In this document: positions 7,776 through 49,917 of the stretch, in pieces
Position numbering within the stretch: position 1 is the stretch's first letter
How the letters are laid out: every line of letters begins with the position of its first letter
DNA from: Ischnura elegans
Lineage: Eukaryota > Arthropoda > Insecta > Odonata > Coenagrionidae
Assembly (NCBI RefSeq): GCF_921293095.1
Contig: NC_060257.1
Coordinates: forward strand, 59,060,968-59,124,967
Direction of reading: 5' to 3'
Length of the DNA: 64,000 nt
Program-made: the position numbers and the translations under genes
Notes under the pieces: generated by a model
What the model was told of the DNA's origin: nothing
Seen by the model: the letters and a program-made list of their open reading frames with translations, nothing else
Database searches by the model: none

Positions 7776-8867
7776 ACATATCCTACAAAGGGTTCCCTCA
7801 GCAGCTCTTCGATTAATTTTTAATGAATAGGGTACACGATATATGGCTAGATTTGCGCCAAGCATTACCTCAGACGAATATTCCGACCGTCATTTGCTGT
7901 GCATATAAAGTAGTATTCAGGATAATTTATATGCAATTCCACACTACCCCACAAGCCGCCTAAAAAGGCGTGTGGCAGGGAGTGTTAGGACACCAGCCGT
8001 TAAAAGCAAACACCCTCAAAAGTAATTTACGCCCAGCATTATTTTAGATAGCCATCTATTATTAAATTTTAACCATTTTTGTAAACCCATAATATATTAA
8101 CTTTCATTGAAGAGCCATCTGAATGATTACAATCTTTTTAGTTTTTGAGAATTTGCTTGCGGGGATAACTACTCCATTAATCCGCCAATGCACCATGCTT
8201 TCCTAATCTAATTTTATCTCTTATTGGTATGGATGGGGTGCGGCTGCCTTGGTAATGAATCATCTTCTAGTCATTCGACTGAGATATCGTGCTGTTTACT
8301 CAACGCAGCAGCAGTCGCAAGAGCAAATTTCGTAAATAATGCCTTAAATCGGTATATTCTTCATAATTCAGTACTATTCCAATCGATCGATATGATAGTA
8401 TTTACTATTACAACATCTCACTATGTAAGGCTTATCAAATTTATTTTGTAACTGTTTATTCATAGTTAACGATGTAAATGATGGTATTCCTCAGTGTACA
8501 TCATTATTTGAAGTGAATTAAAGAAGCCATATATATTTTCGTGATGCGGGTCCTATGACAACGAGCTGTGATATCGGAAATGATGCGAAAAGCGACGGCG
8601 GTAGGGACCGTGTGATTCTGAAAAATGATCACTCGAGCGATCACTTTTCCGGTCGCGGAAAATTTGAATGATCACTAAGAGGGACGGAAAAAATGATGGT
8701 GTATTTCAGGCTTAATATTGTTCAATATCTACGAGTGACCGGATACGTCGGGTGAATCTTCAAGCCAAGCATATTTTTAGATGAAGGAGAATAGAAATAC
8801 TATTTCTCATAAACCTCATAACTAAACGCATTCCCTTCCCAGATTCAAAAAAATAAACATCTTACCT
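7776..8867. other. Gene-free stretch
   Basis: No convincing gene is seen. Part of it (to 8610) is absent from unit B. 8611-8867 matches B from about 37725. Confidence 0.45.
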
Positions 8868-9074
8868 TTGAGATATTTATTTGTTCATAAGGTCCTTGGG
8901 GTATTTTATATTAGAAGTGGTGAAAAGAACTTACCAAGATTAAATAATCTCCATTATTGTAATAATGCTCACATGCCCAGACCAAGAACAGAATTATTTA
9001 AACAAAGCTTCCAATTTTTGGGACCGCAAATTTACGGTGAGTTACCAAAATACATAACTGACGAAAAGAATTAA
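8868..9074 (+). mobile_element. LINE reverse transcriptase C-terminal scrap (unit A)
   Basis: The 68-residue frame contains PRPRTELFKQSFQFLGPQIY then GELPKYI, the usual end of CR1/jockey-type reverse transcriptases (RT..F..SF...G..LWN.LP..I). The rest of the element is not recognisable. The copy at 37982 in unit B shows that it predates the duplication. Confidence 0.5.
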
Positions 9075-10211
9075 TACAGATATTGCAAAAGGGTCATGAT
9101 ATGGTTTTCTGTTCAATATTTTGTTTCAAATGGCCAGTGGCCATTCTTAATTTAGGTTACTTTTCTTGCTCTCTGTCACAGCTTCGGTTAGTTTCTGCCG
9201 TCCTCTTAAGAGAAGGAATTAATAATTTACCGTTGCCACGTTAACGTTTGTTAATTTTATTAATAATATTTTCGTATACAACTCAACAAAAGGAGTTTCA
9301 AGTGAATTATTGGTGCTTGCCTCCGTATGTTTCAGCAATAGTTAGGTTCGTTTGTCCCCCATGACAAGCAGCGACCTCGGTGCCGCTTCCCTGGTGTGAT
9401 CTGGTGGCCGATATAGATTCTCTATTCCAGGAAGATAAATATTTTGAAAATAGAATACAAGTTTGGGGCATAAAGGCCGCCACACGCCTAAGCCATTGTC
9501 CACTGTACATTTTTAAGTTAACAATTTATGTCGAAAACAGTAAAAGGGTTCATTATTAAATTAAACCTGAGGGTATATTACTAAAATACTGACTCGCTAT
9601 TGTAAAAAAATGTACTTTTTGGGTCTGAGGTAACTCGGGCTTCACATCGTGTGTTGGATGGATTTGCCATTTTACTCCTGCATTAGAGCAAATGAACTAC
9701 TTCATGCATGTACAACGTTTACACTTGAAACAAATATTTAATACATATAACCTTAATGCTAAATCAATTTAGTAAGTAATAAAATAGTAATGCATTTAAT
9801 GCTGGAAATAATTATCAATATTTACAGCTTGAATGAATGAAGTTTGAATGAGATTCTCATTGCCAGCGGATAAATCTGAGAAATATTCCTAGCGGCCCAG
9901 TTTTGCTCTGAAGCAACATGCAGTAAAATCTACGTGTGAGGGAATGTTGAAAATATTATAATAACGTATTCTGATGGTTTTTATTTACGCAACCTGACGA
10001 AAAAAAATTAAATAAAATCATGGCAAAACATATTCGATTTTAAAGGTTTAAGTGTTTACTATTTCATCAAAGCCGAGGATATGTTACTAAAATACTAATT
10101 CACCATTGTGAAGAAAAATACTTTTTGGGCCTGAGGGAACTCGGGTGTGTCGGATAGCATTTCTGATAATATAATAGCTGTTGACTACGTTTCTGGTTTT
10201 CCATTTTTTCC
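9075..10211. other. Upstream region of PGRP-like gene A
   Basis: It is shared with 40855-42097 in unit B at high identity, apart from small changes and the palindromic insertion at 41568 in B. No protein is recognised. A possible TATA-like sequence (ATATAATAG) lies near 10168-10176, but no transcription start can be proven. Confidence 0.4.
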
Positions 10212-10235
10212 AGGATGAGAATCGAAAGAGCTTAA
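10212..10235 (+). promoter_or_regulatory. Leader splice acceptor and short upstream frame (gene A)
   Basis: A pyrimidine tract ending CCAG (AG at 10212-10213) precedes the leader and suggests an acceptor of a 5' untranslated exon. Right after it, ATG at 10215 opens a six-codon frame closed by TAA at 10233-10235. Both features are kept in unit B (AG at 42098-42099, ATG at 42101). They could lower translation of the main frame. Confidence 0.35.
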
Positions 10236-10312
10236 ACCCAAGGTTTGGCGACGCGAGGAGGTGGTTTCTCCATCAGTGTAACCGAGGTTTAACCTCCGCT
10301 TTTGGAAGGATT

Positions 10313-10342
10313 GGGAAGTATGGAGTGGGGAAGTATGGAGTG
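10313..10342 (+). repeat. 15-bp tandem repeat at the start codon of gene A
   Basis: GGGAAGTATGGAGTG occurs twice back to back. It places a second in-frame ATG at 10320, five codons upstream of the ATG at 10335. Unit B has one copy and only the ATG at 42195, so I take 10335 as the ancestral start. Confidence 0.85.
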
Positions 10343-13300
10343 GATTTCCCGCTTCCTGATACTGTTGGCGCTGAGTGCATCACTTAGCGGCAAGGCCGTG
10401 GTGAAACCCGATCATCCACTCATTTTCAATGAAGATCAGTCCGACAGATACGTGCCTTCAAGTAAGTATACGCGATGTGTTTAGATATTAGCGGGGATTT
10501 TTTTTAAAATTTCGCTCTTGGAATTGGAATGTTTGGAGTGTCCGACTGATAAAATATTTAAAATAAGTTTAAGGAAGTTTAAATAAATAAAAGATCGTAG
10601 CAATTTTCCACAAACCGTTTACTGCGTACAACGCGTTTCGGCTCACTGAGCCATCTTCTAGTAAAAGACACTGCAAAACATTTGAAAATCACCTTTATAC
10701 CCTTGAGAAAGGGGGTTACGGAGGATTTGACATCTTTGAAGAAGGGAGTGGGAACATTCGTACAGAGTAGAGGCAGTGGGAAACGACCTACCCCTTTTTT
10801 TAACTCTTCTCAACCCCCCTCCCCTTTTTCTGTGGTTCTTCCCACGTGTCGTTATTTTATAGTTATGACTAGACTCCTCCTTCCAACGTGGGTTCCCCAC
10901 ATCCCGTAGTTGTATCTTTTCCCACTGTCTCTACTCTGTACGCCTGTTCCCACCCCCTTCTTCAAAGATATGAAATCCTTCCCAACCAAAGTACAAAATA
11001 TTTTTCACTTATACTTAGAATAAAAACATTAAATTCACCATGGAATCAGTATATAAATCAATCAATTACTAAGATGATCACTTACGTTAAAACCGAGTTG
11101 TTATTCCCTACACGGTCAAGTCTATTTCCTGATAACTCCTTCCATGCTAACTCATTCACAAAAAATGAAAAGAATTACTCAAAATTTATACCCTTTTTTA
11201 GATGCGCTGGAAGCAGAGGAAAAGAGTGATAACACAGCAGTCCTCATTGGGGATAAATTCATCAGTTTAACGGAGCAATGTTACGAAGGTAAGTTTTCTT
11301 TCATCCTTAAGAGGAAATAACGAAGGTAGATAACGACAATCATCATCATCACTGGTCCAAAATCTTAAGTTTGGTTTGCAGCAGCTCCCCAACTCAACTC
11401 TCCTATCAGCTAATCATTTCACACCAACATATTTCTTCTCTATCACATCCTTCTTTTACCTGTTCCATATATTTTGTTCGAGGTCTTCCTTTCATATCCT
11501 TGTCATGTATGATCCCCTCAACATTTCTCTTCATCAAGCAATTACGTCTCAAAATATGGCCGATAAGGTTTATGCCAATACATAGGAAATATGATTCGGG
11601 CGCAATAATCATGTACTAGTCCCATAACACTATCCCTCCCTTTATGCTGGATTTTACCGGGGATTTCTTATAGGATGAATGATCCGGATTCCCATACACA
11701 ACTGAGTTTGCTAGTCGGCTGACTCGGCTTAAAGATACCGGGCCGTCGCCTAACGAGTGATGCCCCTGGGATCAGACTTTTAATTGAATCAAAAGGTCAT
11801 GGATAGGGTTGACCCGAGTTCCGCGATAATCGCGATGAGGTCTTGAGTAATGCGCTCGAAGGATGGGAAATTAAGGATGTTAGCCTTTGAATCACGAAAA
11901 TTCTTGTGATTTCTGCGATAACAGTTAATAAACTCCAATACTTATGAGCCAACGTCGGCACCTACAACACTCACTTTACACACACACACGGCTTCTCCTC
12001 AAATACCCTCAAAATCACACGTCTCCTTATCAAGGATTTCACGAGGCTTCTCTTCTCACCTACTTTTCCTGGGACTTCCTCATTATTTACTCGGAAGATC
12101 CATCAGATCCTCATTCTTTCAGAATCACATTTCGAAGCCTCTATCCTTTATTTCTCCGCTGCTGTCTTTGTCCAGGCCTCACTTCCTTGGCGAAGTATAC
12201 TCCAAATATAAATAATACCAAAGTTTTTGCTAAATTCTATGTTTAAATTTCCCGCAGTAAGTAGATCTTTCCTAGATGATAATAACAGTTTTTAAGCATG
12301 AAAATTCCAAATGGGAAAATAGCAGGATGGGAGGATGTCCAGGGATAAAAAAATCGTGGATACTCGAACATTTTCACTTTTTCAATGACTTCAGTGATTC
12401 ATCATCCTCATCTACTGTATTTATTCGCTATTGCAAGTTTTTGCCACATTAGTTTTCGTTACTGAAGTATCAGTAAATGTGGTACATAAATTGATTCCAA
12501 CGATGTGAATTCTAACTAATCTCTATATTATCACTTAATTTGTTCCTGTAGAGCCAATGAAGTACGACATCATATACCAGACGGCCTGGAAGCCAGCCCA
12601 AAACAACGAAGCCATTCGGATGTTTGAACCCGCCAATTTCGTCGTGGTACTTGACGGAGAAGTAGGTTGCTACTCGAAGGCTGACTGCATTTACGATGTT
12701 CAACAACAAGCGACACCCAATCTGCCAGATGGATGCAAACTCCGGGAAAATTTCTACATTGGCGGAGACGGAAACGTCTACGAAGGAAGAGGATGGAAGA
12801 TATCACCTTACTGGTACCTGAGCGGACTCAGGAATCAGTCCCTCGCGGTCAAATTCATGGGTAACCACGATTCGAAACTACCCTCCCACAAAGCCCTACA
12901 AGCATTCAAATCTTTGCTTGTCGCGGGAGTTTGGCTGGGAACCCTGTCTCCCCGTTACCAGATCGTCTCCATCAGGCAGCTCGCGGAAACCGAAGCAACC
13001 GTGGGCGAAATGCTACACGAAAACGTTCAGGAGTGGGCAGGTTGGGTCAATGACGAGGTTCCCATGTCGAGGTGGGAGTATCAGCCCCAAGGCTTCCTCA
13101 ACCTCGTATTTCGTCGAGAATGGAACGCCACGGAACCGTTGAGGCAACCAGAGGACACAATACAACCAGTCTTGTACGTGCTCCTCAACAACGTCGGCCA
13201 GCGTTGTCATTCTCGCAAGGAATGCATCTCACTGATGAAATCCTTGCAACAGTCACACCGCGAAGATTACGGGGACCTCCTGGATAATTTTTACATCGGA

Positions 13301-15697
13301 GAAGACGGGAACGTCTACGAAGGCAGGGGTTGGGATTACCTACCTCAATGGTACGTAAAAGGCATGCAAAGGAGTTATGTCAGCGTCAGTTTCCTGGGAG
13401 CGTTCGATTCCGAGATACCGGCGTACCGAGCGATAACCTCTTTCAAGGAGCTCATCAACACCGGCATTAGACTGGGAAAACTATCCACACTATACAAATT
13501 GACATCCCTCCGCGTGATATATGATGACCAGGTTCTGCTAGGGGACGCGCTACACACTTACGTCCAGAAATGGACACCTTGGGCACACATTTACGATGAG
13601 CTGACGACCGAAGGACGCATGGAAGCCAATTTAGTTCCCCTGATAGGGCGTTCTGGATGGATATATGAAAGTCCACCCGCACCTACATTTAAAAATATCG
13701 AACCCAGTTTTCCTGTCGAATTCATCGTAATACAGGATGGTGGAGAAGCCTGTTTTTATGTAACGGATTGCAGGGATAATATGAATTTAGAGAAGAATGA
13801 CCTTCTTTATAACTTTTACGTCGGAGGAGACGGTATAGTGTATGAAGGCCGCGGGTGGGAATACTCCCCACCATTATACCTAAAACATTTCCATCATTCC
13901 TACATTACCATCAAGTTCTTTGGGACTTACAACGATACCGTGCCCAATAACATGACAATGCTAGCATTCAGGTCTTTCATCAAACTTGGGATCGATACGG
14001 GAAAGATATCTCCCTCCTACCAATTATACTCCCTACGGCACATCTACAATGACTCCACCTTCTTGGGGAGCGCTCTCAGTGAGTATGCCGAAGGATTGCC
14101 TCAGTGGTCGAGCGAAATGGAGGTTGACGATGACAAGGAGCGCAAATCAAGGGGCATGCTGCCGCTAGTCTCCCGCGATGACTGGAACGCTACTTCTCTA
14201 GGTGAAAAATTCCTCGAGATCAAAGGTCATGTTCATTACGTGCTGGTCGGAGCGACAGGAGGAGAAAAATGCTACTCTTGGTCCGAATGTATTCTACGGA
14301 TCCAAGAACAACAGCGACGGGGAAAAGATCTGTGCGATTCCGTCACAGATCATTTCTACATCGGCGACGACGGTAACTTTCACGAAGCCTTGGGCTGGGC
14401 AGAATATTCCGGCGATATCAGCGAACAGTCTCAGGAGAGGGCCATATCAGTGCGATTTTTCGGCAGTTTCCAGTATGACATCCCATCTCGCTTGGCGATG
14501 TCAGCCTTTCGGAGGTTTTTGGAATATGGAATAAGTACCGGAAAGCTTTCGGAAGACTATGTGGTCAAAACTTATCGACAGTTGAGTAATTGCTCGAACG
14601 AATTGGGAGACAGATTCCAGGGCGTGATTGAAAGTTTGGATCGTTTCTCTAACGAGACCATTTCGTCAAATGTTTCAGAGTCCCTCCCTTACAATCCATT
14701 CCTCATCGTTCCCAACGCGAATAAGAAATCCTACTATGCCACTTCCCGGCGTAGCAACAGTGTTTCTCGCCCGGCTACATACGTTGTTATATCCGACGGA
14801 GGAGAACGTTGTTTTGATCAAGACCAATGCCTCACCCAGGTGAAGACCCTTCCTTCCGGAAAGGACGATTACGAGAACTTCTTCATAGGCGAAGATGGTC
14901 GTTCGTACGAAGGATCAGGTTGGAGCACAAACTTTTACGGACGACGTTTCTGCCCAGACTGCGAAATGATTTTCATAGGTTTCCTGGGAAAATTCAATTA
15001 CGATTTACCGTCGTCGACTGCACTTAATGCCATGAACTATCTCATAAAGCGCGGAATCCGCTGGGGAAAGGTACATCCCGACTATACATTAGTCTCCATC
15101 CGTCAGCTATGCAGTAACTGCTCACTGGTGGGAGATTCCCTGAACATCGCCATTCGCACCTGGAGCAAATGGAATGAACAGGTAAACATCACCGCGGAAT
15201 GCAAACCATTTGAGAGTGAAATAGTGCCAAGAAATGTCTGGAGAAATTATCATCAAGATTTTTCCTCTGACAGCAATTATCGCCACACATGGGATTTCTA
15301 CAGAAACATTCAAGTTACAAATTATCACGATGAATGCTACACCAAGGAAGAATGCATCACTTCGTTACGTAATCATGACGGCAATTCCCCAGATATAAAT
15401 TTCTACATTACTGGCGATGGAGAAGTTTACCAGTGCCTTGGTTGGGAATATGGAAGAATATACTACAATTATAATCGCAATTATGGGTATCGAGAAAGCC
15501 AAATCGATACCCTCAAGGTCGCATTTGTTGGCGACTTTGACAACGAAGTTTCTTCAAATGCTATGGCCCATGCGTTCAGAAAATTCATTGTTAAAAAAGG
15601 AATTGAAAATGGAAGGCTTCAATCATCATACACACTGAGCGGCAGTTTAAGTGGCACATACGGTGACGAAGTTTACGATATGCTTCGTCAACGCTAA
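10335..15697 (+). CDS. Secreted protein with six tandem amidase-dead PGRP-like domains (copy A)
   Basis: Three exons (10335-10461, 11202-11288, 12552-15697) with GT/AG junctions, both introns in phase 1, give 1,119 residues. Residues 1-20 are a signal peptide (hydrophobic FLILLALSA). Six repeats start near residues 75, 254, 432, 607, 788 and 960. Each has the PGRP CX5C pair (111/117, 290/296, 472/478, 645/651, 825/831, 1000/1006) and the core like NFYIGGDGNVYEGRGW (end residues 153, 332, 507, 687, 862, 1036). Domains 2, 4 and 6 start with the family's RxxW motif (REW, DDW, NVW). The zinc His after the first strand, the His of GHRD and the zinc Cys of ECPG are all replaced, and the catalytic Tyr survives only in domain 3, so amidase activity is not expected. 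Likely an extracellular binding or decoy protein. Several N-glycosylation sequons; no membrane anchor. AATAAA follows the stop. Confidence 0.88.
10720..10984. repeat. Foldback repeat in intron 1 (unit A)
   Basis: The arm at 10721-10784 and its inverted copy at 10919-10982 share motifs such as CTTTGAAGAAGGG, GTACAGAGTAGAG and GCAGTGGGAAA. The loop is about 130 bases. The transcript of intron 1 could fold into a long hairpin. It is also present in unit B. Confidence 0.7.
11380..11640 (-). mobile_element. LINE ORF2 tail fragment in intron 2 (unit A)
   Basis: The minus-strand frame (11406-11612) reads LIGHILRRNCLMKR followed by KGRPRTKYMEQVK. This is the typical end of many arthropod LINE ORF2 proteins (IGHVLR...L...EG...GRGRPR). 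The upstream part of the same type of ORF lies at 12030-12210, separated by unrelated sequence. Confidence 0.65.
11700..12200 (-). mobile_element. LINE ORF2 fragment present only in unit A
   Basis: On the minus strand 12030-12210 encodes QGSEAWTKTAAEK, then RIEASK, and later NNEEVPGKVGEKRSLVKSL with stops between. This matches the segment that normally precedes the GHILR/RGRPR tail of LINE ORF2. Unit B jumps from 43554 to AAGTATACTCC with about 500 bases less, so B has a deletion or A an insertion here. Confidence 0.5.
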
Positions 15698-15700
15698 AAA

Positions 15701-15706
15701 AATAAA
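15701..15706 (+). promoter_or_regulatory. Polyadenylation signal of PGRP-like gene A
   Basis: AATAAA starts four bases after the TAA stop (15695-15697). Unit B has the same hexamer at a matching place. The very short distance implies a short 3' untranslated region. Confidence 0.55.
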
Positions 15707-17435
15707 AGTTGTGGAAATATATGTGGAAATCTCATATTGAGCTTGATTTTAAAATAAAATTAAGATCGCAAGTTTCCGAAGCTTGTATAGAAAAAGTCTT
15801 AATTTCAGATAGAACCCAATGACATAATTAACTTACTGATAATATTCATCGTAAGGTATTTTCTCTGTCATATACATATTCTTAACGCAAGGACAAAAAA
15901 ACTATAAATATGAAGAAACCACCATGCGATGTTACCGTATGAACGATTGATTATTTTCATTCCATATATTTTAGTATCCACTGGTTAAAATTATACTACG
16001 AAGTTGAAGTGTTGGCTGGTGATGGCTACTTTGGCTGTTGAGGTAGTACTGTGGGCATAGATTTATCCATATTTTAAGGATTTCATGCTATGAGTTGTTT
16101 GTGGTTACTTGATATTATTAGAAGGATAACAATATAGCATGCTTAGGCACATCTAATATCACTGTGAGCAATATCTGGATATACTCGATGGAAGAAAGAA
16201 GATTCACAGAATAATTTAAAATAAATATATATTCATTAGTTTGCGAGCTAATTTAAGAAACCTTCCACATGCATATCCACACAATAATTTTATTGCAACC
16301 CGTTTGAACAGCTGAGTGCAAGAACCAGGTAATAACCAGGCAAATACGAAATTTTCACAAACAAATAAAGCTACAGCTCCTCACTACCAGCAGAAATTGT
16401 TAGTCCGGTAGTAGTACACTTTAGTTCATCCGATATCGATAAAATCTTTATATCTACTCTCCGAGTGCAAAAGCCATTATTTTTTCCTCGAAAATTCCCC
16501 TTTGGATGTTATCTTGCTTTTGCAAAAAATTCACCAATTCCACTTACCGATTCGCCGCTCCATGATGTTGTATAACAATTCACCACGAATAAATGAGTAG
16601 TATAACTAGAGAGAAAAGTTTCAGGGTTACTCTGGTGGAATTGCAACAAAATAGCAAATAAAAAAGTTACTGAAAATTTTCCACAAATACAAATAATTAT
16701 GGAAAATAACCAGTAACTTTTCATTAAATAAAATGTGACGAATGTTACTTCCTCATCGTACCAGTGCCTAACCATGCAGACATTCACAGAAACTGCTCTT
16801 CAATTTCACTTCCGTCAGTATCATGCATCGGGATCACGTTTCAGTCGATATCCAGACTATAGTGATATATACTGATGAGTTGTTTCTTTACAACTCTTAT
16901 TCCTATTTTTTTAAATGGTTTTAATGTAATAAAATCAATAAAGAAAAGATCACAATGACTTTACACAACTGTCCATTTACATTTAAATTTTATTTCATGC
17001 CATTTCAAAAGCAGAATAGCATAGTTGCAATACGCTAAAGTTAATTACGAGATGTTAGAGCGGACGAATCTAGGAAAGTATCTAGTAGATGTCAATTTAT
17101 TGTGAGAGTTACGGGCGATGTAGGCACACAACATTGCGGAAATAGAAACATTTAATATTTAATATTGATGATATTTTATTACCATTCCAGATTCATGTAT
17201 ATATCTGGAATGGTAATTAAATATCACCTTCCACCCTTGCTTGTATCACGGTAGAGCTAATTTTTAAGCAGAAATGGGCGAAAAAAAGTTATTTATGTGG
17301 ATGAAAAGGCTTTTATTTATTTTAAATGATACATTATTACCATTCCAGAATATAACTTATCTTTGTGAGTACCTTAAGAATTTGGCCAGTTTTTTTAAGT
17401 CTAAATTGTTTAAGATAGGAATCATGCTTAACAGT
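15707..17435. other. Downstream region of gene A
   Basis: It is similar to 47055-48610 in unit B but more diverged than the gene itself. No gene is recognised. A short inverted repeat (next entry) is the only clear structure. Confidence 0.45.
17169..17225. repeat. Small inverted repeat (unit A)
   Basis: TTTATTACCATTCCAG and CTGGAATGGTAATTAAA form a near-perfect stem with a loop of about 13 bases. The unit B copy is at 48328-48386, and ATTACCATTCCAG recurs at about 17335. It is probably a short MITE terminus. Confidence 0.5.
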
Positions 17436-17897
17436 TAGTTATGAGTAGAGCGCGGAAAAAAAGTCTCCAATTTTTCAAAAAAAAGTCGCCTAAAAAGTCG
17501 TCAATATTTTTGAAAAAAGTCTCTTTAAAAGTCTGAGTTATTTCCATGAGAAAGTGGCTGGATTTAACTGAATTGATGGAGAAAAGAGGGTAGAGATGCG
17601 GATTATTGGGTTTACGTGTTATTTTATGGTCTCTTAAGACAGGAGATCACCATAATTTTACAAAATATATTTTTTAATTCTGAATAACACTTTCTTTGAT
17701 GATCAGCAATTGTTTAAGAATATAGTTGACCCCTGTAATTTTTTTAGCTGATCAATGTCTATTTTTATTTTGAAATAGGGAAATTAAAGTCAAATTACAG
17801 GTTATGGATAACAGATTTTATTTATTAATTGCATGATATAAAATAAAGGAAAAAAACGTATATTCATTCACTTCGAGTTGTATTGCTAAAAACTTTT

Positions 17898-20473
17898 TTA
17901 ATGAAATAGTGACAGATAAGGTATTTTTCTGTTTTCCATGGTAAATGTTGTGCGACGTTCGGTCAAAATAAGTTTATACGTCGAAAACGATCGCTCAACT
18001 TCACGTGTTGTAATAGGAGCATATCGCAGCGTAGCCACTTCACTTAAGGTGAGTTTTTGAAAACATTAGATGTCTGCCCCTTGACCTCTCCGTTGAGAAT
18101 CTGAGCTATATCAGTCATTAACTTGAAGCCTTCGTTTTTATCCAAAACATTGCACAATTTGCCATAAACACTTGCGGCTTGTTCACCCTTTACACATACA
18201 AGTTTCTTCTTCACATCCATTATTGTAGACACCGAGTCACTGAGGCTCAGGATGGAAGATTCAAGATATTTGATTTTTTCTACCAAAAACCCAAAGGATG
18301 CTGAAATACATATCATTTCCAGTGGGAGTGTGCTATCTTCTAAGAGTTCTCGAGCATTTTCTATACATTCTGCATCGTCTTCAGGGTCAATATTCTGTAT
18401 AACCTGAAGTAAAAAATTAAAATACAGTTTTCCTCTTTAATTTAGAACGTGCAGTTGTAGTTATTTTTAATTGAGCAAAATTGCAGGTATTCTATTTCAT
18501 ATAATGAAATTGATTTATCAGTCACAATCATAACTACAAATAATTACTTACATTCTTAATTTTCTCGAAGTGTTGGGCATTGAACACGCAAGCTTCCAGC
18601 CATGTTCCAAATCTCGTGAGGACTGGATCCGGAGGCAATGGCAGATCGCAGCAAAATGTTTTGTATATTTCCACGCGCGATGGTGCTTTCAAAAATACCT
18701 ACGAAAATATTAGTTCTGCAGTAATATATTGGAAAATTTATTTTTATTTTTATTAACGGCAAGTACCTACCTTCTTAATGGTAGAGACCCACTTATTTGC
18801 AGTGGGAAATCTTTTGCGAATTTCTTCGCATACTCTGTGAAGAGTATGCACTTTGCAAGTGATGTGAATCATTTTAGGGTAGAAAAACACCAAAACTTTG
18901 GCGGCTTTAACCATGTAGGCCGCTCCATCGGTTAGGAGAAGAAGCAAATTCTCTCTAGCACTATTAACTCCAAACAAGGAAGCTGTAAAAAAATGAATAC
19001 ATTACGATAAGCAAGGTAAATATGCGGCAAAAACTCATCAACATAAGTTATACCGTTAATTAATTTCAGTTCTAATTTGAATATGCTAGCCTTTTCAGCA
19101 AAAATTTCACAATACCAAATTAGGTATCATCACTTACTCAAAGATTCGTCAATGCAACGAGCGACCGTTTCATTATTTACTCTTTCAAGTTCCTTGGATA
19201 CTATGAGGTAGGGTTCATTGGGCTCATCTGGTGTCAATTTTCCGACCAATATGTTGCACACATATCGACCCTTAACATCAGTCGTTTCATCAACAATGGC
19301 ATATAACTTGCTTACTTTCAGGTCATCCTTGATACTTTTCGTTATCTAAAACACAAGAGAATTTTTTTTAATATTAAGGCAAACACTTAAAGAGCAATAA
19401 AAATTGGCCAGGGCACATAATTACTTTCTTAGTAAATAGTTAATACTTTTTCGTTCTTAATCTTATTCCATTTTGATTACGACCAGGAAATAGTAAAAGT
19501 ATTTCAATAGATAATACTATTTCCGACGCAAACTATGCATCTTGAAAGGCAGGCAGAAAATAGGTCTTTATATTTTATGAAGAATTATAATTAAAAACAC
19601 ACGCAATGTATATTTAAAGATGTATCGAACAATGTTGACTTATTCGGGAATGCCCATTCATCATATATGTTATATTTTAGTGAACTATTTATGCAATACA
19701 ATGATTGATACAGCCGAATATTTCTTTGAAATCGTATCAAACCAAAGTTTCAAACGCTTATATCCAAAGAGCAGGCATGCAAAAGATTTTTACAGCATTT
19801 ACTACGTAAAAGTATTTAGAAACTCATACCTTTTCATGGAGTCTCGGCAAGTAAGTTTTCCGAAGAGAACTCTCAGATGGAACTGTCCTTCTTAAATATT
19901 TTTCCATAAACGATGTGAATAGAGGGTGTTTTGATTTGTAGGAATGTTCAATGCCACAAATAGCTCGCACAAGTCTAAAGCAAACTCATCGCCGGTGGCT
20001 GCAAACGATAGTTGGCTCTGTCGTAAACTCTGCAAGCTCACGGTTTCCTTTAATTTCACTTGAGATAGATGCGATGAGCTGTCAATGTGCTGTTTTACAT
20101 GTGACTTTTTGTCTGATGATATCTTGAAAAATAATGAGAAAGATAAATTATTATTAGAATTACTTTTAATGTTAATTTTTCAGCATAGCTCAAAATAGGT
20201 CTTTGTATTTTTATAAAGAATTATAATAAAAAACACACACAATGTACAGTTAAAGATTTATCTCACAATTTTGACTTATTCGGGAATGTCAAAAAATTCT
20301 TAGTAATAGTTATTATTATTATAGTCGTCAGATTCAAAAATTGCATTGATACTCACGGTTTTTTCACAAGCATTGCAGTAAATACTGTTGCTCATAACTT
20401 GCAGGAACTTGCATAGTGAAGCATACGCAGTCAGCTTGGCTTCTGAAGACGCCTGTCCTTTCACCTTGTACAT
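17898..20473 (-). pseudogene. Intron-containing hAT-like transposase gene, frameshifted
   Basis: Six exons with canonical junctions can be traced on the minus strand: 20473-20357, 20122-19830, 19345-19138, 18982-18771, 18698-18552, 18403-18044. The N-terminus has a BED-like zinc finger (CNACEKT then SHVKQH). Later come AIVDETTDVKGRYVCN (19285 region), LLLTDGAAYMVKAAKV, KMIHITCKVHTLHRV, VFLKAPSRV, and the hAT dimerisation-like end YAPITTREVERSFS. The exons join in frame except exon 2, whose 293 bases imply a one-base loss, and the last exon, where the YAPIT segment lies in another frame than the stop at 18044. The family matches CGGBP1-like/hAT proteins common in insects. The gene is missing from unit B, where A from about 20860 joins B 48645. 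Confidence 0.65.
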
Positions 20474-21456
20474 TTTCTTGGGCTGGGCTGCACAAACGAG
20501 CGGACGATGGTCTTGCGACGCTTGGGGACCTCAGCAAATGACTGAAACTTTACGCGTCTCACTCGAATATATAGAATTGTGTTCATACAATGTGTATAGA
20601 TTCACCAGTCCTTGTTGAGCCTTCATATTCCCTCTTCGACCGAGTGCCAAGAGCGCATAGTTTGCCTCTCTACAATGTAGGCTCATTTTGTAACCATCTA
20701 CACTCAACGTGAGACATTCACTTCGTCGGAAATTCTAGATAAAATTTCATATATTTGTATCATTTTTCCACTAATCTCCTGCAAAAAGCAGAGTGCTAGC
20801 TTACAGTGTAGCGCTGTCCCCTTGTCAGCAGACCACCCGGGTTCAAATAAGTTCACATCCTCAGTTACTGTACAAAACAACCCTATCATTTCATTTCAGT
20901 TACATTTATTATTTAAAAATTATGGGATCACGTTTGAGTCGTTCCTCAAGTATTTGACGGTCTTGATGATTTGTTTATATTATTTACATGTCAAATATAA
21001 TTTTTTGCATTGGCGATGTCGTGAAATAGATAAAGAATATATTACAACTAATCTGCATTTAAGTTACCATTCATAGCAATGGTATCATGATATTTCAATT
21101 AAAGAATTAACACGAATAAAGAAGTTACAATTCGCAACAGCACAAGTAATTACTGGAGAGAATAATAACGGACGGCCCTCGGAAAGAACTTCATAGATCT
21201 AAATTTACCGAGGCAGTGAAATACTTAGGAGTGAAAATAATGATATTGATCAATTTTACTTCTACGTCTACATTCATTAAAAAAAAGCCGTTAATGGTTT
21301 TCTTGTGACCCATTTCCACAAAAAAAAATCGCTTCACCTTAGCGTGACTTTCATTCCTGTGACAGCAAATAAAATCCGTACCTAAAAATATTTTTACGGT
21401 GGCGCTATGGCAATGAGAACGAAGGTAAGTTGAGAAACCATTTCTTGAGAGTAAGT
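20474..21456. other. Gene-free stretch
   Basis: No gene is recognised. From about 20860 it matches unit B from 48645. The segment 20474-20860 belongs to the A-only insertion that carries the hAT-like gene, but no terminal repeat could be fixed. Confidence 0.4.
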
Positions 21457-22054
21457 ATGGCCTCGTCTTGTCCCTTCACAAATGACAAAATGGAAGAATT
21501 GGCGAATGTAATCATTGAGGAAATAAAATACAATGCGAATTGTTTACTCCGTGCAAGTCTATCTGCTTGCATAGAAGTTTGGAAAACTGTCATAAAGTAT
21601 GGCATTTAAGAGTTCATGGAATGAACAAATAAATAAACACCGGAATAGAAACCATTTAACTGTGAAATATTGCCAAGAATTGTCTGAAGAAATTACCATC
21701 AACAATTTTCCTCCGACATCCATTACCGTATGGAGAATTTCTTCACAATTATTGAAATTAAAAATTCTTACGCAAACTGCAACACTAAGGAGGAATACAT
21801 CACCTGGTTGCGTAATCATAACAGCCATTCTCCAGAGATAAATTTCTACATTTGCGGCGATCGAGAAGTTTACCAGTGCCTTGGCTGGGAGTACATCAGA
21901 AGAAGCTATTATGGCTATCATGAAAGCCAAATAGACCCCCTCAAAGTTTCATTAAATTCTATGACCTATGCGTTTAAAAAAACTCATTGTAAAAAGAGGA
22001 TATTGAAAATGGAAGGCTTCATTCATCGTACAGTGGCAGTTATAGTGATTTAAT
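21457..22054 (+). pseudogene. Decayed PGRP-like domain 5/6 relic (unit A)
   Basis: The frame at 21730-22053 contains TKEEYITWLRNHNSHSPE, INFYICGDREVYQCLGWEY and ESQIDPLKV, close to domain 6 of the gene at 10335. Upstream, 21604-21720 is still alignable to the end of domain 5 (WNEQ) and the start of domain 6 at the DNA level, and 21540-21590 resembles the end of domain 5. The second Cys of CX5C is changed to Tyr. Part of the GDFD segment is lost, and stops and shifts break the frame. No signal peptide or first exons lie nearby. Confidence 0.75.
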
Positions 22055-22344
22055 TATCACAAAGTCAAGATTACTGGCGAATATAATTTTTATACCAATT
22101 AATGATAATAAATTTGCCCCACAAGAACGACGAAACACCCCTTGACCGCCAGCAGAAAACAAGCCTACTGTTGACTCACTGTTATGACATAACGGATGCG
22201 GTATGTCCAGGGCGACGCTAGTGGTCATATAAGGACCATGGTATTGGTATTGGTTTCATCGGGCGCCTAGAAAACTGAGCACCACACCTTCTACTGACTG
22301 CTTTTTATCTAGAGGTAAAGATTTACATAGCATAATTCAAACTA

Positions 22345-22800
22345 CTGTCAGCTTGAAAACGATGTTCCGCTGTATTTTGCAAATTTATATCTAGACTTCA
22401 GTGCATGCCATAATAATAAATAATACGTCATTTTAAAGGAAATTTTATTCTCAATTCTGATTTATTTTTTGTTTTTTGAAAAATTCCAAAATGAAGACAC
22501 GCGAGTGAAATAAATGACTTCGATCACCATGATATTAGCAGTTTTGTCAACTTCATGAGCTTTGTAACTCTACCTAGGGAAAACTACAACGTCTACAACA
22601 TTAATATTCCACAATAAGTAGCAAAAATTAATTTAGATTAATAAAATGGCTTATTTGTATTTTTAGAACGCATATTTCATTGTAAAATGGCGAATATGTT
22701 TAAACACTATCTAGTCCTACAGTTTACCCCAAAAGAAAAAAGAAAATTCATATAAAACCTTATTTATTTGCATTTTTTCTATGATCCATAATCCAGCCTA
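22345..22800. mobile_element. Terminal-inverted-repeat element (unit A), inner part inverted relative to B
   Basis: The left arm (22345-22585) matches 50208-50446 of unit B. The following 22590-22795 matches 50447-50659 in the reverse orientation (for example GATCCATAATCC here against GGATTATGGATC in B). The right arm seen in B is missing here beyond CAGCCTAGTTT. Confidence 0.55.
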
Positions 22801-24030
22801 GTTTACTGCGAGTAGATTTTTACCGGTCTACCCATATGATCAATTTTGAGTATTTCAAGTTCTAAACGTCGCTTTTGCTCTTCTTTCTGATCATTTGTTG
22901 CTGTCCATTAGTCTATTTTTAACTTGGCCATGCCAGGATGTGCCCTATTGGCATAATTAATGTTGCTTAATAACTTCTGCCGCAAGTAATTTGCTGCCAA
23001 GAACCTATTCAAGCAAATTCGATATACCGAAGATATTGAGCTCGATGTTAGAGAGCCAAAACTCTGAGTGTAATAGGATTTTGGAAAGGAAGAAAGATAT
23101 TTTGTCCTTGACAATTTAATAGTTGAAGGGCTGGACGAATAGGACGAAGTTTTATATAACACGTAATAACCTGCGCTGGACGTTGAAGTTCCGTCTTTAT
23201 TTTTAGACGGAATGTTAAAAGTCTCCAAAAAGCCATTTTTGGCCACCCTGCCGTCCTCTTTCTCTAACCGATGGGCGAGGTAAGCTTTTCTCCCCATAAC
23301 TCACCCTCCTCTCATTGTCATTCTCCTTCTTCAGGGGCCAAGAGCTTTCAAACAACCCGTATAAACTGGGGAAAGAATTATCGATACTCATTAACAATAC
23401 TACTTGGCCAACTTAACATGGGTTCACGGCCCGTACCGCTTGAAATCGATGCCCATATGATCTCACCGTTTTAGGTTTGGCTTGTCAGTTCGTCCCAACG
23501 ATCATATACCCCACGGAAAGATTCGGCACTCCACGTTTAAAATCGCGTCGTAAGTTCGACTTCAGCGGTGCCAGCCGATCCTGCGGCGAATATGGAACTA
23601 CTGTGATCGGGAGTGGGCGAATCCATAAAAAATCTGTTGATTCGTCATTTATTGTGTTCACCTTTAAACGAATCTGTACCTATCCTCTCATTTCTTGACA
23701 TTCTCATTTATCTTCTGTCTCCAAAATGTAAATTCCACATTTTTCCTCGGTGTTTTGAAACATATTAATTTAAAGTTGTTTTATCGTAGCAAATTTAAGT
23801 TAATGGGAGCGCGTTCACCATGTAAAATGTACTTTAAACTATTACAGATTAGAAATGTGATATAATAATTTTTATTACACGGATTAAAATAAATTGTTTT
23901 ACATAAGTGACCGTATGCCATTTACAAAAATGTTTACAAAAAAATTACAGCTAGCAGGAAAGAAAGAATATAAGTTTGAAAAAAAATACAAAATACCGCC
24001 GAGAATAATTAAGTATAACCTTGTCATTAT
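22801..24030. other. Stretch without a recognised gene, different from unit B
   Basis: This 1.2 kb has no counterpart in unit B. The longest frame (22908-23297, minus, 129 residues, Ser rich) has no domain I recognise. G/C-tract MITE ends and long repeats are not seen. Confidence 0.35.
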
Positions 24031-42194: not shown

Positions 42195-45100
42195 ATGGAG
42201 TGGGTTTCCCGCTTCCTAATACTGTTGGCGCTGAGTGCAACACTTAGCGGCAAGGCCGTGGTGAAACCCGATCATCCACTCATTTTCAATGAAGATCAGT
42301 CCGACAGATACGTACCTTCAAGTAAGTATACGCGGTGTGTTTAGTTATTAACGGGCGTTTTTTAAATTTCGCTCTTGGAATTGAAGTGTTTGAAGTTTAG
42401 AGAGTCCGATTGATAAAATATTTTTACACTTTAAATAAATAAAAGATCGTAGCACTTTTCAACAAACCTTTTACTGCGTACAAAGCGTTTCGGCTCACTG
42501 AGCCATCATCTGGTACAGGACACTGCAAAACATTTGAAAATCACCTTTATACCCTTGAGAAAGGGGGTTGCGGAGGATTTGACACCTTTGAAGAAGGGAG
42601 TGGGAACAGGCGTACAGAGTAGAGACAGTGGGAAAAGACCTACCCCTTTTTTTAATTCTTCTCAACCCCCCTCCCCTTTTTCTGTGGTTCTTCCCACGTG
42701 TCGTTATTTTATAGTTATGACTAGAGTCCTCCTTCCAACGTGGGTTCCCCACATCCCGTAGTTGTATCTTTTCCCACTGTCTCTACTCTGTACGCCTGTT
42801 CCCACCCCCTTCTTCAAAGATATGAAATCCTTCCCAACCAAAGTACAAAATATTTTTCACTTACACTAAGAATAACAACATTAAATTCACCATGGAATCA
42901 GTATATAAATCAATCAATTACTAAGACTATTGCTTACGGTAAAACCGAGTTGTTATTTCCTACACGGTCAAGTCTATTTCCTGTTAATTCCTTCCATGCT
43001 AACTCATGCACAAAAAATGAAAAGAATGACTCAAAATGTATACCTTTTTTTAGATGTGCTGGAAGCAGAGGAAAATAGTCATAACACAACAGTCCTCATT
43101 GGGGATAAATTCATCAGTTTAACGGAGCAATGTTACGAAGGTAAGTTTTCTTTCATCCTTAAGAGGAAATAACGAAGGTAGATAACGACAATCATCATCA
43201 TCACTGGACCAAAATCTTAAGTATGGTTTGAAGCAGCTCCCCCACTATACTCTCCTATCAGCTAATCATTTCACACCAACATATTTCTTCTCTATCACAT
43301 CCTTCTTTTACCTGTTCCATGTATTTTGTTCGAGGTCTTCCTTTCATATCTTTGTCATGTACGATCCCCTCAACATTTTTCTTCATAAAGCAATTACGTC
43401 TCAAAATATGGCCGATAAGGTTTATGCCAATACATAGGAAATATGATTCGGGCGCAATAATCATGTACTAGTCCCATAACACTATCCCTCCCTTTATGCT
43501 GGATTTTACCGGGGATTTCTTATAGGATAAATGATCCGGATTCCCATACACAACAAAGTATACTCCAAATATAAATTATACCAAAGTTTTTGCTAAATTC
43601 TATGCTTAAAATTCCCAAAAGAAGTGGATCTTTCTTTGATGATAATAACTGTTTTTAAGCTTGAAAATTCCAAATGGGAAAATAGCAGGATGGGAGGATA
43701 TCCAGGGATAAAAAATCGTGGATACTGGAACATTTTCAGTTTTTCAACGACTTCAGTGATTCATCATCCTCATCTACTGTATTTATTCGCTATTGCAAGT
43801 TTTTGCCACGCTAGTTTTCGTTACTGAAGTATCAGTAAATGTGGTACATAAATTGATTCCAACGATGTGAATTCCAACTAATCTCTATATTATCACTTTA
43901 CTTTCTCCTTATAGAGCCAATGAAGTACGACATCATATACCAGACGGCCTGGAAGCCAGCTCAAAACAACGAAGCCATTCGGATGTTTGAACCCGCCAAT
44001 TTCGTCGTGGTACTTGACGGAGAAGAAGGTTGCTACTCGAAGGCTGACTGCATTTACGATGTTCAACAACAAGCGACACCCAATCTGCCCGATGGATGCA
44101 AACTCCGGGAAAATTTCTACATTGGCGGAGACGGAAACATCTACGAAGGAAGAGGATGGAAGATATCACCTTACTGGTACCTGAGCGGACTCAGGAATCA
44201 GTCCCTCGCGGTCAAATTCACGGGTAACCACGAATCAAAACTACCCTCCCACAAAGCCCTACAAGCATTCAAATCTTTGCTTGTCGCGGGAGTTTGGCTG
44301 GGAACCCTCTCTCCCCGTTACCAGATCGTCTCCATCAGGCAGCTCGCGGAAACCGAAGCAACCGTGGGCGAAATCCTACACGAAAACGTTCAGGAGTGGT
44401 CAGGTTGGGTCAATGACGAGGTTCCCATGTCGAGGTGGGAGTATCAGCCCCAAGGCTTCCTCAACCTCGTATTCCGTCGAGAATGGAACGCCACGGAACC
44501 GTTGAGGGAACCAGAGGGCGCAACACAACCAGTCTCGTACGTGCTCCTCAACAACGTCGGCCAGCGTTGTCATTCTCGCAAGGAATGCATCTCACTGATG
44601 AAATCCTTGCAACAGTCACACCGCGAAGATTACGGGGACCTCCTGGATAATTTTTACATCGGAGAGGACGGGAACGTCTACGAAGGCAGGGGTTGGGATT
44701 ACCTCCCTCAATGGTACGTAAAAGGCATGCGATGGAGTTATGTCAGCGTCAGTTTCCTGGGAGCGTTCGATTCCGAGATACCGGCGTACCGAGCGATAAC
44801 ATCTTTCAAGGAGCTCATCAGCACTGGCTTGCGACTGGGAAAACTATCCACACTATACAAATTGACATCTCTCCGCATGATATATGATGACCAGGTTCTG
44901 CTAGGGGACGCGCTACACACTTATGTCCAGAAATGGACACCATGGGCACACATTTACGATGAGCTGACGATCGAAGGACGTATGGAAGCCGATTTAGTTC
45001 CTCTGATACGGCGTTCTGGATGGATATATGAAATGCCACCCGCACCTACATTTAAAAAAATCGAACCCAGTTTTCCCGTCGAATTCATCTTAATTCAGGA

Positions 45101-47045
45101 TGGTGGAGAAGCCTGTTTTTATTTAACGGATTGCATGGATAACATGAATTCAGAGAGGAATGACCTTCTTTATAATTTTTACGTCGGAGGAGACGGTATA
45201 GTGTATGAAGGCCGCGGGTGGGAAGACTCCCCACCATTATACCTAAAACATTTCCATCATTCCTACATTACCATCAAGTTCTTTGGTACTTACAACGATA
45301 CCGTACCCAATAACATGACAATGCAAGCATTCAGGTCTTTCATCAAACTTGGGATCGATACGGGAAAGATATCTCCCTCCTACCAATTATACTCCCTAAG
45401 GCACATCTACAATGACTCCACCTTCTTGGGGAGCGCTCTCAGTGAGTATGCCGAAGGATTGCCTCAGTGGTCGAGCGAAATGGAGATTAACGATGACCAG
45501 GAGCGCTTATCAAGGGGCATGCTGCCGCTAGTCTCCCGCGATGACTGGAACGCTACTTCTCTAGGTGAAAAATTCCTCGAGATCAAAGGTCAGGTTCATT
45601 ACGTGCTGGTCGGAGCGACAGGAGGAGAAAAATGCTACTCTTGGTCCGAATGTATTCTACGGATCCAAGAACAACAGCGACGGGGAAAAGATCTGTGCGA
45701 TTCCGTCACAGATCATTTCTACATCGGCGACGACGGTAACTTTTACGAAGCCTTGGGCTGGGCGGAATATTCCGGCGATATCAGCGAACAGTCTCAGGAG
45801 AGGGCCATATCAGTGCGATTTTTCGGCAGTTTCCAGCATGACATCCCATCTCGCTTGGCGATGTCAGCCTTGGGGAGGTTTTTGGAGTACGGAATAAGTA
45901 CCGGAAAGCTTTCGGAAGACTATGAGGTCAAAACCTATCGACAGTTGTGTAACTGCTCGAGCGAATTGGGAGACAGATTCCAGCGCGTGATTGAAAGTTT
46001 GGATCGTTTCTCTAACGAGACCATTTCGTTAAATGTTTCAGGATCCCTCCCTTACAATCCATTCCTCATCGTTCCCAACACGAATAATAAATCCTACTCT
46101 GCCACTTCCCGGCGTACCAACAGTGTTTCTCGCCCGGCTACATACATAGTTATATCCGACGGAGGAGAACGTTGTTTTGATCAAGACCAATGCCTCACCC
46201 AGGTGAAGGCCCTTCCTTCCGGAAGGGACGATTACGAGAACTTCTTCATAGGCGAAGATGGTCGTTCGTATGAAGGATCAGGTTGGAGCACAAACGTTTA
46301 CGGACGACGTTTCTGCCCAGACTGCGAAACAATTTTCATAGGTTTTCTGGGGAAATTCAATTACGATTTACCGTCGTCGACTGCACTTAATGCCATGAAC
46401 TATCTCATAAAGGGCGGAATCCGCTGGGGAAAGGTACATCCCGACTATACATTAGTCTCCATCCGTCAGCTATGCAGTAACTGCTCACTGGTGGGAGATT
46501 CCCTGAACATCGCCATTCGCACCTGGAGCAATTGGAATGAACAGATAAACATCACAGCGGAATGCGAACTATTTGAGAGTGAAATAGTGCCAAGAAATGT
46601 CTGGAGAAATTATCATCAAGATTTTTCCTCAAACAGGAATTATCGCCGGTCGAATGTTTACGGAACGATTGTAGTTTCAAATTCTTACGCCCACTGCAAC
46701 AATAAGGAAGAATGCATCGCCTGGTTGCGCAATCATGATAGTAATTCCCCAGAGACGAATTTCTACATTTCTGGCAATGGTAATGTTTACCAGTGCCTTG
46801 GCTGGGATTACATCAGGGGAATTACTAACAGCAGGCACCGTTGGGATCCTCCAGAACCAGATACCCTCAAAGTGGAATTCATTGGCGATTTTGACAGTCG
46901 AGTTTCAGCAGATGCTATGACCCAGGCGTTCAGAAAGCTCATTGTAAACAAAGGAATTGAAAATGGAAATCTTCGTTCATCATACACACTGAGCGGCGTT
47001 TTAATTGGCATATACGGTGATGAAACTTACGACATGCTTGGCTAA
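42195..47045 (+). CDS. Secreted protein with six tandem amidase-dead PGRP-like domains (copy B)
   Basis: The exons are 42195-42321, 43054-43140 and 43915-47045, with the same GT/AG junctions and phases as copy A, giving 1,114 residues. The signal peptide (VSRFLILLALSATLSG) and the six CX5C/GDG-core repeats are kept, and the frame is fully open. By direct comparison I count about 57 substitutions from A over the first 900 or so residues of the long exon, but about 58 plus gaps over the last 145 (domain 6), where the region after CLGW is rebuilt. The zinc-binding and catalytic positions are lost here too. Domain 6 has CNNKEEC instead of CYTKEEC, closer to the nearby relics. Two intact frames after duplication suggest both copies are under selection. 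AATAAA lies four bases after the stop. Confidence 0.88.
42572..42834. repeat. Foldback repeat in intron 1 (unit B)
   Basis: This is the counterpart of 10720-10984. The arms match better here: GTGGGAACAGGCGTACAGAG on the left pairs fully with the right arm, whereas A reads CATTC in place of CAGGC. Confidence 0.7.
43258..43470 (-). mobile_element. LINE ORF2 tail fragment in intron 2 (unit B)
   Basis: It has the same LIGHILRRNC...KGRPRTKYMEQVK frame as 11406-11612. The upstream portion kept in unit A is missing here. Confidence 0.6.
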
Positions 47046-49238: not shown

Positions 49239-49917
49239 CCTCTTCTTGTTCCTTCAAATAAGACGAAATGGAAGAATGAGCGAATTTAATCATAGAGGAA
49301 ATAAAATACAATGAGAACTGCTTACTCCGAGCAAGTCTATCTGCTTGCATAGAAGTTTGGAAAACTTTCACGAAGTATGACATTTAAGAGTTAATGGAAT
49401 GAACAGATAAAAAAACAGCGGAATAGAAACCATTTGAGTGTCTTTGAGTGTTTGAGTTTGCCAAAAAATGTCTGGAGTAATTACCATCAACAATTTTCCT
49501 CCGATAGCCATAAACGCATGGAGAATCCCTTCAAAATCATTGAAATTAAAATTTTTTACGCCGATCGCAACATTAAGGAAGAATACATCACGTGGTTGCG
49601 TAATCATAACAGCCATTCCCCACGGATACATTTCTACATTTATGGCGATCGAGAAGTTTACCAGTGCCTTGGCTGGGAGTACTTCAGGAGAAGCTATTAT
49701 GGCTATCATGAAAGCCAAATAGATACCCTCAAAGTCGAATTCATTGGCGATTTTGACAGTGAATTTTCATTAAATTCTATGACCTATGCGTTAAAAAAGA
49801 ACTAATTGTAAAAAGAAGAAAAATGAAATGGAAGTCCTCATTCATCATACACACCTAGTGGCAGTTACGATGATGAAGTTTACAACTTTCTCCATCAATT
49901 ATTTAAAAAAATAAAAG
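49239..49917 (+). pseudogene. Decayed PGRP-like domain 5/6 relic (unit B)
   Basis: The frame 49434-49805 reads LPKNVWSNYHQQFSSDS, KEEYITWLRNHNSHSP, IHFYIYGDREVYQCLGWEYF, YHESQIDTLKVEFIGDFD and MTYALKK. It keeps more of domain 6 than the unit A relic, including GDFD. Both Cys of CX5C are lost (RNIKEEY). A frame break after ALKK is followed by still alignable sequence to AATAAAAGG at 49910, like the end of the real genes. It originated before the duplication. Confidence 0.8.

What the first reader, a model, noticed from the sequence alone, without database searches (positions are those of the whole stretch)
10335..15697. Six-domain, amidase-dead PGRP-like secreted protein encoded mostly by one exon
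Seen: a signal-peptide exon, a linker exon and a 3.1-kb exon with six repeats of about 175 residues, each with the CX5C pair and a GDG...GW core. Known: PGRPs normally have one to four domains, and amidase types need two His, one Cys and a Tyr. Here the His and Cys positions are replaced in all six repeats (for example IVIQDGG instead of the VIHHTA-type strand; SIRQLAETEATVG instead of GHRD..ECPG). Inferred: a multivalent extracellular sensor, decoy or structural protein rather than an enzyme, possibly binding polymeric glycans or bacteria through six low-affinity sites. I know of no described six-domain PGRP of this type.
Basis: partly seen in the sequence, partly recalled or inferred. Interest (0 to 1): 0.88.

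Follow-up and report, generated by a model that had tools for sequence, protein, structure and literature searches.

The report
Damselfly six-domain, non-enzymatic peptidoglycan-recognition-like protein
This damselfly gene makes a secreted-type protein of six linked bacterial-wall-sensor-like modules that lack the cutting enzyme's key residues; six-module proteins of this kind were already reported from another damselfly in 2017, but what they bind is still unknown.

Summary
At 10335-15697 lies a three-exon gene for a 1,119-residue, secreted-type protein with six PGRP (Amidase_2) domains in the last exon. Every domain matches solved PGRPs; none has the amidase His, His, Cys set. The host is the damselfly Ischnura elegans. 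The novelty claim fails: PMC5381652 (2017) describes single-exon six-domain PGRPs in the damselfly Calopteryx splendens. Added here: at least 19 I. elegans loci with 92 such domains. First His kept in 0 of 92, second His 0, Tyr 10, Cys 1. Core residues are kept while loops carrying canonical His and Trp are replaced, often alike. Domains group by array position, imperfectly: non-equivalent modules rather than six equal weak sites. A second intact copy lies at 42195-47045. Best reading: a non-enzymatic multivalent recognition or scaffold protein; the ligand is unproven, classical peptidoglycan binding doubtful.

The parts
10335..10461 (+). Exon 1: start codon and signal-peptide-like stretch (MEWISRFLILLALSASLSGKA...); donor GTAAGT at 10462
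   Evidence: same exon in copy b at 42195-42321
11202..11288 (+). Exon 2: linker ending ...LTEQCYE; borders AG / GTAAGT
   Evidence: copy b 43054-43140; end, donor and phase kept in paralog L011
12552..15697 (+). Exon 3: six PGRP domains and stop codon
12557..13087 (+). Domain D1 (PGRP by sequence, no amidase residue set)
13088..13633 (+). Domain D2
13634..14149 (+). Domain D3 (keeps only the Tyr of the amidase set)
14150..14686 (+). Domain D4
14687..15202 (+). Domain D5 (extra CPDC and CSNC cysteines)
15203..15694 (+). Domain D6, weakest match of the six
42195..47045 (+). Second intact gene copy (exons 42195-42321, 43054-43140, 43915-47045; 1,114 aa; exon-3 protein 89% identical)
21616..22055 (+). 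Broken orphan D6 fragment downstream of copy a (stops, frameshift, one CX5C Cys lost)
49393..49917 (+). Broken orphan D6 fragment downstream of copy b (stops, frameshift, both CX5C Cys lost)

Best explanation
The gene is an Ischnura elegans member of the multi-domain PGRP kind described from damselflies. It encodes a secreted-type, glycosylatable, non-enzymatic protein of six PGRP-like modules in tandem. Shown from sequence: gene structure, six PGRP domains, absence of the amidase residue set, replacement of loops that carry canonical His and Trp, position-specific conservation, an intact tandem paralog. Inferred: the mature protein circulates in haemolymph or sits at a body surface and uses its array of non-equivalent grooves to bind a repeating or mixed glycan surface, most likely microbial. 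It would then act by clustering or bridging (opsonin, or scaffold for the melanization or Toll serine-protease cascades) rather than by cutting peptidoglycan. Identity and loss of enzyme activity are about 95% sure; the immune multivalent-recognition role is about 45% likely.
For: Signal-like start; the best 19-residue hydropathy is 1.49 there, the next best elsewhere 1.27 at residue 186; 11 N-glycosylation sequons. All six domains match solved PGRPs. Catalytic residues across 92 family domains: first His 0, second His 0, Tyr 10, Cys 1. Core positions kept: Cys of CX5C 84 and 89 of 92, G of DG 91, GW 92 and 84, FxG 89. Loop positions replaced: Phe-His loop 0 and 6 of 92, S/W loop 1 and 0, VGAH loop 3, 0 and 2, with Trp in 49 of 92 at that last His. 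Domains group by array position. The four older paralog pairs compared show dN/dS 0.18-0.26, though at dS of 1.0-2.9, so long-term constraint is likely. The Calopteryx authors proposed clustering in peptidoglycan sensing or melanization.
Against: Loss of the canonical His and loops argues against ordinary peptidoglycan binding. The core/loop split is not clean: some canonical-invariant columns outside those loops are lost too (G102 0, P115 3, Q118 2, E128 0 of 92). His lies within two residues of the second-His column in 10 of 92 domains and Cys within two of the Cys column in 9 of 92. No enrichment of Rel/kappaB-like sites in the window (3 found, 1.79 expected; 3 found, 1.44 expected). The window pair shows dN/dS 0.61 in exon 3 and 0.057/0.093 over the whole CDS, so constraint on the two copies is loose or they are diverging.
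Confidence: 0.5

Rival explanations
1. A structural or adhesive extracellular protein (for example egg coat, cuticle, peritrophic matrix or gill surface) that has reused the PGRP fold as a stable building block and binds self glycans or proteins, with no role in sensing microbes.
For: Canonical loop residues are replaced in most domains while the core is kept; the modules are large, carry a conserved Cys pair and stand in tandem; 11 sequons.
Against: Each position keeps its own conserved motifs, more than a mere spacer needs; the nearest solved relatives are PGRPs, most of them known as immune proteins (their role recalled).
Confidence: 0.25
2. A decoy or negative regulator: a non-enzymatic PGRP that titrates peptidoglycan fragments or pairs with canonical PGRP receptors, as Drosophila PGRP-LF is held to do (recalled).
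For: Non-catalytic; PGRP-LF domains are among the PDB matches (2xz4 at 2.2e-23, 2xz8 at 8.3e-13); canonical PGRPs without the catalytic Cys exist in the same genome.
Against: No clear membrane anchor; best matches are not specifically PGRP-LF; canonical loops replaced, so titration of the ordinary ligand is doubtful.
Confidence: 0.15
3. A decaying or relaxed gene family without a distinct function, kept by recent duplication.
For: dN/dS of 0.52-0.91 in the five youngest pairs compared; orphan broken D6 pieces next to both window genes; L022 is split into two frames.
Against: Eight open frames of 1,052 to 1,076 codons, stop to stop; dN/dS 0.18-0.26 in the four older pairs compared, at high dS; six-domain genes reported also in Calopteryx.
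Confidence: 0.1

Closest known systems
Calopteryx splendens multi-domain PGRPs (Ioannidis et al. 2017, PMC5381652)
   Same: Six PGRP domains in a single exon, several neighbouring genes, also genes with fewer domains, domains falling into positional groups, set apart from canonical PGRPs.
   Different: I. elegans has more genes found (8 six-domain against 4); four-domain genes here, a three-domain gene there. Two short 5' exons precede the long exon in both window genes. A catalytic-residue census is not in the section that I read whole; the supplement was not read.
Insect non-catalytic PGRPs such as PGRP-SA, PGRP-LC and PGRP-LF
   Same: Match by sequence to solved PGRPs; CX5C pair; no catalytic Cys (recalled for these proteins).
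   Different: One PGRP domain per protein in SA (recalled) and per LC isoform, two in LF (from PMC5381652). The His-Thr strand end is kept in 5 of 5 canonical Ischnura PGRPs but lost here.
Amidase PGRPs (PGRP-LB, SB, SC type)
   Same: Shared Amidase_2 profile; PGRP-LB chains match the domain profile.
   Different: The His, His, Cys set is absent here; a catalytic-type C-terminal segment (HRQ...ECPG) exists elsewhere in the same genome (L008).
Mammalian PGLYRP3 and PGLYRP4
   Same: Tandem PGRP domains.
   Different: Two domains, from a separate domain duplication (as told in PMC5381652).

Membership tests
PGRP domain family (Amidase_2 superfamily) | Significant match to the family profile | tested here: met
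   PF01510 3.8e-33 for the exon; one by one, D1 and D3 pass the cut-off and D2, D4, D5, D6 hit below it; PDB PGRPs match every domain
PGRP domain family (Amidase_2 superfamily) | PGRP three-dimensional fold | not tested
Amidase-type PGRP (zinc amidase) | Two zinc His, a Cys and a Tyr (set recalled; columns located on canonical relatives) | tested here: not met
   Window gene: 0 of 6 for first His, second His and Cys, Tyr 1 of 6; family 0, 0, 1 and 10 of 92; near misses
Damselfly multi-domain PGRP family of PMC5381652 | Six PGRP domains in one exon | tested here: met
Damselfly multi-domain PGRP family of PMC5381652 | Domains group by array position and apart from canonical PGRPs | tested here: met
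   10 changes against 63.2 shuffled; the 5 canonical rows on one side of a branch with support 99/94. Not perfect: each position needs 2-3 changes, and the bootstrap had not settled
Damselfly multi-domain PGRP family of PMC5381652 | Direct sequence orthology with the Calopteryx genes | not testable with these tools
   I had no Calopteryx sequences: the collections offered are of prokaryotes, metagenomes, viruses, phages, plasmids and E. coli, and supplements could not be opened
Transmembrane long PGRP (PGRP-LC type) | Membrane-spanning segment and cytoplasmic tail | tested here: not met
   Plain hydropathy scan only: 1.49 at the signal-like start, next 1.27 at residue 186, inside D1; no membrane predictor was run
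Peptidoglycan-binding PGRP | Conserved ligand groove | tested here: inconclusive
   Canonical loop residues replaced, but position-specific motifs are conserved; no binding test

The most novel reading that the evidence does not exclude
The family has turned the peptidoglycan groove into a new kind of binding site. The His-Thr strand end became an acidic motif, often D/E-G-G (D or E in 68 of 92 at or next to the first His), the active-site Tyr became mostly D or E (59 of 92), and the GAH loop often became P-x-W (Pro 45 and Trp 49 of 92). Acidic plus aromatic residues could make a cation-assisted or stacking glycan site, so each six-domain damselfly protein would be a rod of up to six different lectin-like sites evolved from an enzyme fold.
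Probability: 0.3. Interest if true: 0.65.

Novelty: new member of a known kind. Interest (0 to 1): 0.42.

Why it matters
It shows that six-domain PGRPs are not a Calopteryx oddity. In a second damselfly genus they form a larger set of genes, without the amidase residue set in any of the 92 domains examined and with positional conservation. That makes a concrete question testable: what does a non-enzymatic six-module PGRP array recognise, and does it contribute to the melanization response that is used as an immune measure in odonates (as told in PMC5381652)?

Tried and rejected
Chance or misread frame: rejected. Six-domain architecture as unprecedented: rejected by PMC5381652. Papers on multi-domain or odonate PGRPs were searched; one search listed one further paper, on Anopheles PGRP-LC, that holds the phrase 'three PGRP domains' (listing only), on PGRP-SA clustering, was seen as a listing only. 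Amidase activity: rejected on residues. Immune-type kappaB control: patterns not above chance in the window. Reading the D/E residue as exactly replacing the first His: left open, because MAFFT and HMMER place a one-residue gap differently; His within two residues of that column occurs in 3 of 92 domains. Open-frame lengths over 1,400 reported (near L015, L016, L017 and L019): my frames there are 1,071, 1,062, 922 and 906 residues, and the ORF listing agrees for the two that I checked, L016 and L017; I did not find out why differs. NCBIfam gave only one sub-threshold, unrelated hit. A search of PF17275, an ill-chosen accession, did not complete and was not repeated. My first ORF scripts missed the minus-strand loci; corrected.

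Left out of the counts: L032 (same gene as L007), fragments L008, L033, L037, locus L006 (no domain hit), and places without a locus (for example C8:10098122 and C3:98664664), so 19 loci and 92 domains are a lower bound. The two halves of L022 are counted as one locus with four domains.
Full report
Source of the window. The window lies on contig C12 of a 1,722,721,009-base genome in 110 contigs. The seven contig lengths that I saw (C1 170,575,982; C3 139,038,753; C5 137,531,555; C7 118,302,689; C8 118,119,564; C11 103,413,653; C12 94,743,817) agree, rounded to 0.01 Mb, with chromosomes 1, 3, 5, 7, 8, 11 and 12 of the damselfly Ischnura elegans assembly ioIscEleg1.1, as do the 110 scaffolds and 1,723 Mb (PMC9975421, passages seen). 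I take the window to be I. elegans chromosome 12.

Observation. Exons 10335-10461, 11202-11288 and 12552-15697 join in frame at GT-AG borders to a 1,119-residue protein. It begins with a signal-peptide-like stretch (my reading; no predictor run). In a plain hydropathy scan the best 19-residue window is 1.49 there and the next best elsewhere 1.27, inside D1; there are 11 N-glycosylation sequons. The last exon holds six PGRP domains: PF01510 at 3.8e-33 with six stretches. Five domains searched alone against PDB sequences have a PGRP as best match, at 4.4e-19 (D1), 6e-15 (D3), 3.4e-12 (D4), 2.7e-14 (D5) and 1.6e-9 (D6); D2 is the best stretch of the whole-exon match to PGRP-LCx, 2.4e-22. Against Pfam one by one, six of six hit Amidase_2 but only D1 and D3 pass the curated cut-off. 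CX5C pairs are present in all six. The gene model is supported by comparison: the second window copy has exons 1 and 2 of 127 and 87 nt with the same phases, and the 59%-identical paralog L011 on C7 keeps the end of exon 2 (QCYE, then the donor) and an exon 3 acceptor in the same phase (read by eye from its output). There is no transcript evidence.

Family in the genome. A search of the own genome with the exon-3 protein gave 48 matches. After ORF extraction and a profile search, the fetched loci hold 19 multi-domain loci: eight with six domains (L009 and L010 in this window; L011-L014 on C7; L015 and L016 on C8), four with five (L007, L017, L019, L026), four with four (L018, L020, L023, L025), two with two (L027, L028), and L022 split into two frames of two. 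That is 92 domains, a lower bound. Five single-domain canonical PGRP loci (L001-L005, L005 partial) served as a yardstick.

Catalysis. On the joint alignment the first catalytic His is kept in 5 of 5 canonical rows and 0 of 92 family domains; the second His in 3 of 5 and 0 of 92; the Tyr in 5 of 5 and 10 of 92; Cys at the catalytic place in 0 of 5 (one a gap) and 1 of 92. So the canonical single-exon rows themselves lack the catalytic Cys. Allowing two residues either way, a His is near the first-His column in 3 of 92, near the second-His column in 10 of 92 (both window D3 among them), and a Cys near the Cys column in 9 of 92 (both window D4 and D5 among them). A catalytic-type segment (GHRQTKATECPG) does occur elsewhere in the genome, in L008. 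The naming of these residues as the amidase set is recalled.

What is kept and what is replaced. The CX5C cysteines are kept in 84 and 89 of 92. Of 61 columns invariant in four canonical PGRPs, many core columns are kept (N and F of YNF 83 and 83 of 92; G of DG 91; G and W of RGW 92 and 84; G of FxG 89), while loops that hold canonical His and Trp residues are replaced (F and H of the FH loop 0 and 6; S and W of the next loop 1 and 0; V, G and H of VGAH 3, 0 and 2). The split is not clean: some canonical-invariant columns outside those loops are lost as well (G102 0, P115 3, Q118 2, E128 0). The replacements recur: D or E in 68 of 92 at the first His column, D or E in 59 of 92 at the Tyr, Pro in 45 and Trp in 49 of 92 in the old VGAH loop. 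HMMER puts a one-residue gap on the other side of the first His, so that acidic residue is at, or next to, the old His. That these loops line the ligand groove is recalled knowledge of PGRP structures, not tested here.

Modules are not interchangeable. A tree of 97 domains groups them by array position with 10 label changes, against 63.2 for shuffled labels; the five canonical rows sit on one side of a branch (99/94). The grouping is not perfect: every position needs two or three changes, the deepest forks are weak, the bootstrap had not settled, and D6 of the window genes and L011 is apart from the other D6 domains on a long branch. Among the eight six-domain genes, invariant columns fall from 32 and 34 in D1 and D2 through 27 and 21 to 16 and 15 in D5 and D6. 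So the array is probably older than most of the gene duplications, and the positions have kept separate characters.

Local history. Matching pieces between 8611-22804 and 37724-50786 show a duplicated block, with unmatched stretches and some inverted pieces. The two genes differ by dS 0.03-0.08 in D1-D5 but 0.385 in D6, and the main downstream pieces are 78-85% identical against 93-97% in gene and upstream, which points to a recombination or conversion edge near the start of D6. Each gene is followed by a broken, orphan D6 piece. dN/dS is 0.61 for the window pair (exon 3), 0.52-0.91 for the four other young pairs compared and 0.18-0.26 for the four older pairs compared, whose dS of 1.0-2.9 is near or past saturation.

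Comparison with what is known. Ioannidis et al. 2017 (PMC5381652; abstract and passages, the immune section whole) reported in Calopteryx splendens four genes with six PGRP domains in single exons, plus five-, three- and two-domain genes, domain groups A-F, a clear split from canonical PGRPs, and no protein with more than four such domains in their UniProt search. They found no multi-domain PGRP gene in the two other Palaeoptera then available. They suggested clustering-type sensing and melanization. The finding is therefore a further member of a published kind. The 2016 I. elegans transcriptome paper (PMC5131402, passages) lists 27 PGRP transcripts and reports two kinds as up-regulated in females, without saying in the passages seen which are multi-domain. 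Searches of the paper library for multi-domain or odonate PGRPs gave no further description of six-domain proteins in their listings; most subscription papers are not held.

How it most likely works. Shown by sequence: a secreted-type, six-module PGRP array without the amidase residue set, likely under long-term constraint in its older members. Inferred: multivalent, non-enzymatic recognition or bridging at microbial or other glycan surfaces, perhaps feeding melanization. The loss of canonical loop residues makes ordinary peptidoglycan binding doubtful; a structural role is the main rival.

Noticed in passing
window 42195-47045: Second intact six-domain gene, exon-3 protein 89% identical to the first.
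   Followed up: yes
window 21616-22055 and 49393-49917: Broken orphan copies of domain D6, one downstream of each gene.
   Followed up: partly
window 15203-15694 against 46566-47042: Sharp jump of divergence at D6 (dS 0.385 against 0.03-0.08 in D1-D5), a likely gene-conversion or crossover edge.
   Followed up: partly
L018, L020, L022, L023, L025, L027, L028 (chromosomes 3 and 8): Young four- and two-domain copies scattered over two chromosomes. The four-domain copies compared share flanks at about 85-96% identity, the two two-domain copies share flanks with each other; dN/dS 0.52-0.91 in four pairs compared. What spread them is unknown.
   Followed up: partly
window 14687-15202 (D5): Extra CPDC and CSNC cysteines; a CxxC pair, a third Cys and a last Cys recur in D5 of all four C7 paralogs.
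   Followed up: no
L001-L004 (C1 and C11): Canonical single-domain PGRPs each in one open frame, keeping the His-Thr strand end but with Ser at the catalytic Cys place.
   Followed up: no
window 57806-58693: Open frame of 295 residues; 291 of them scanned gave no significant Pfam match. Its look recalls a transposase, untested.
   Followed up: no
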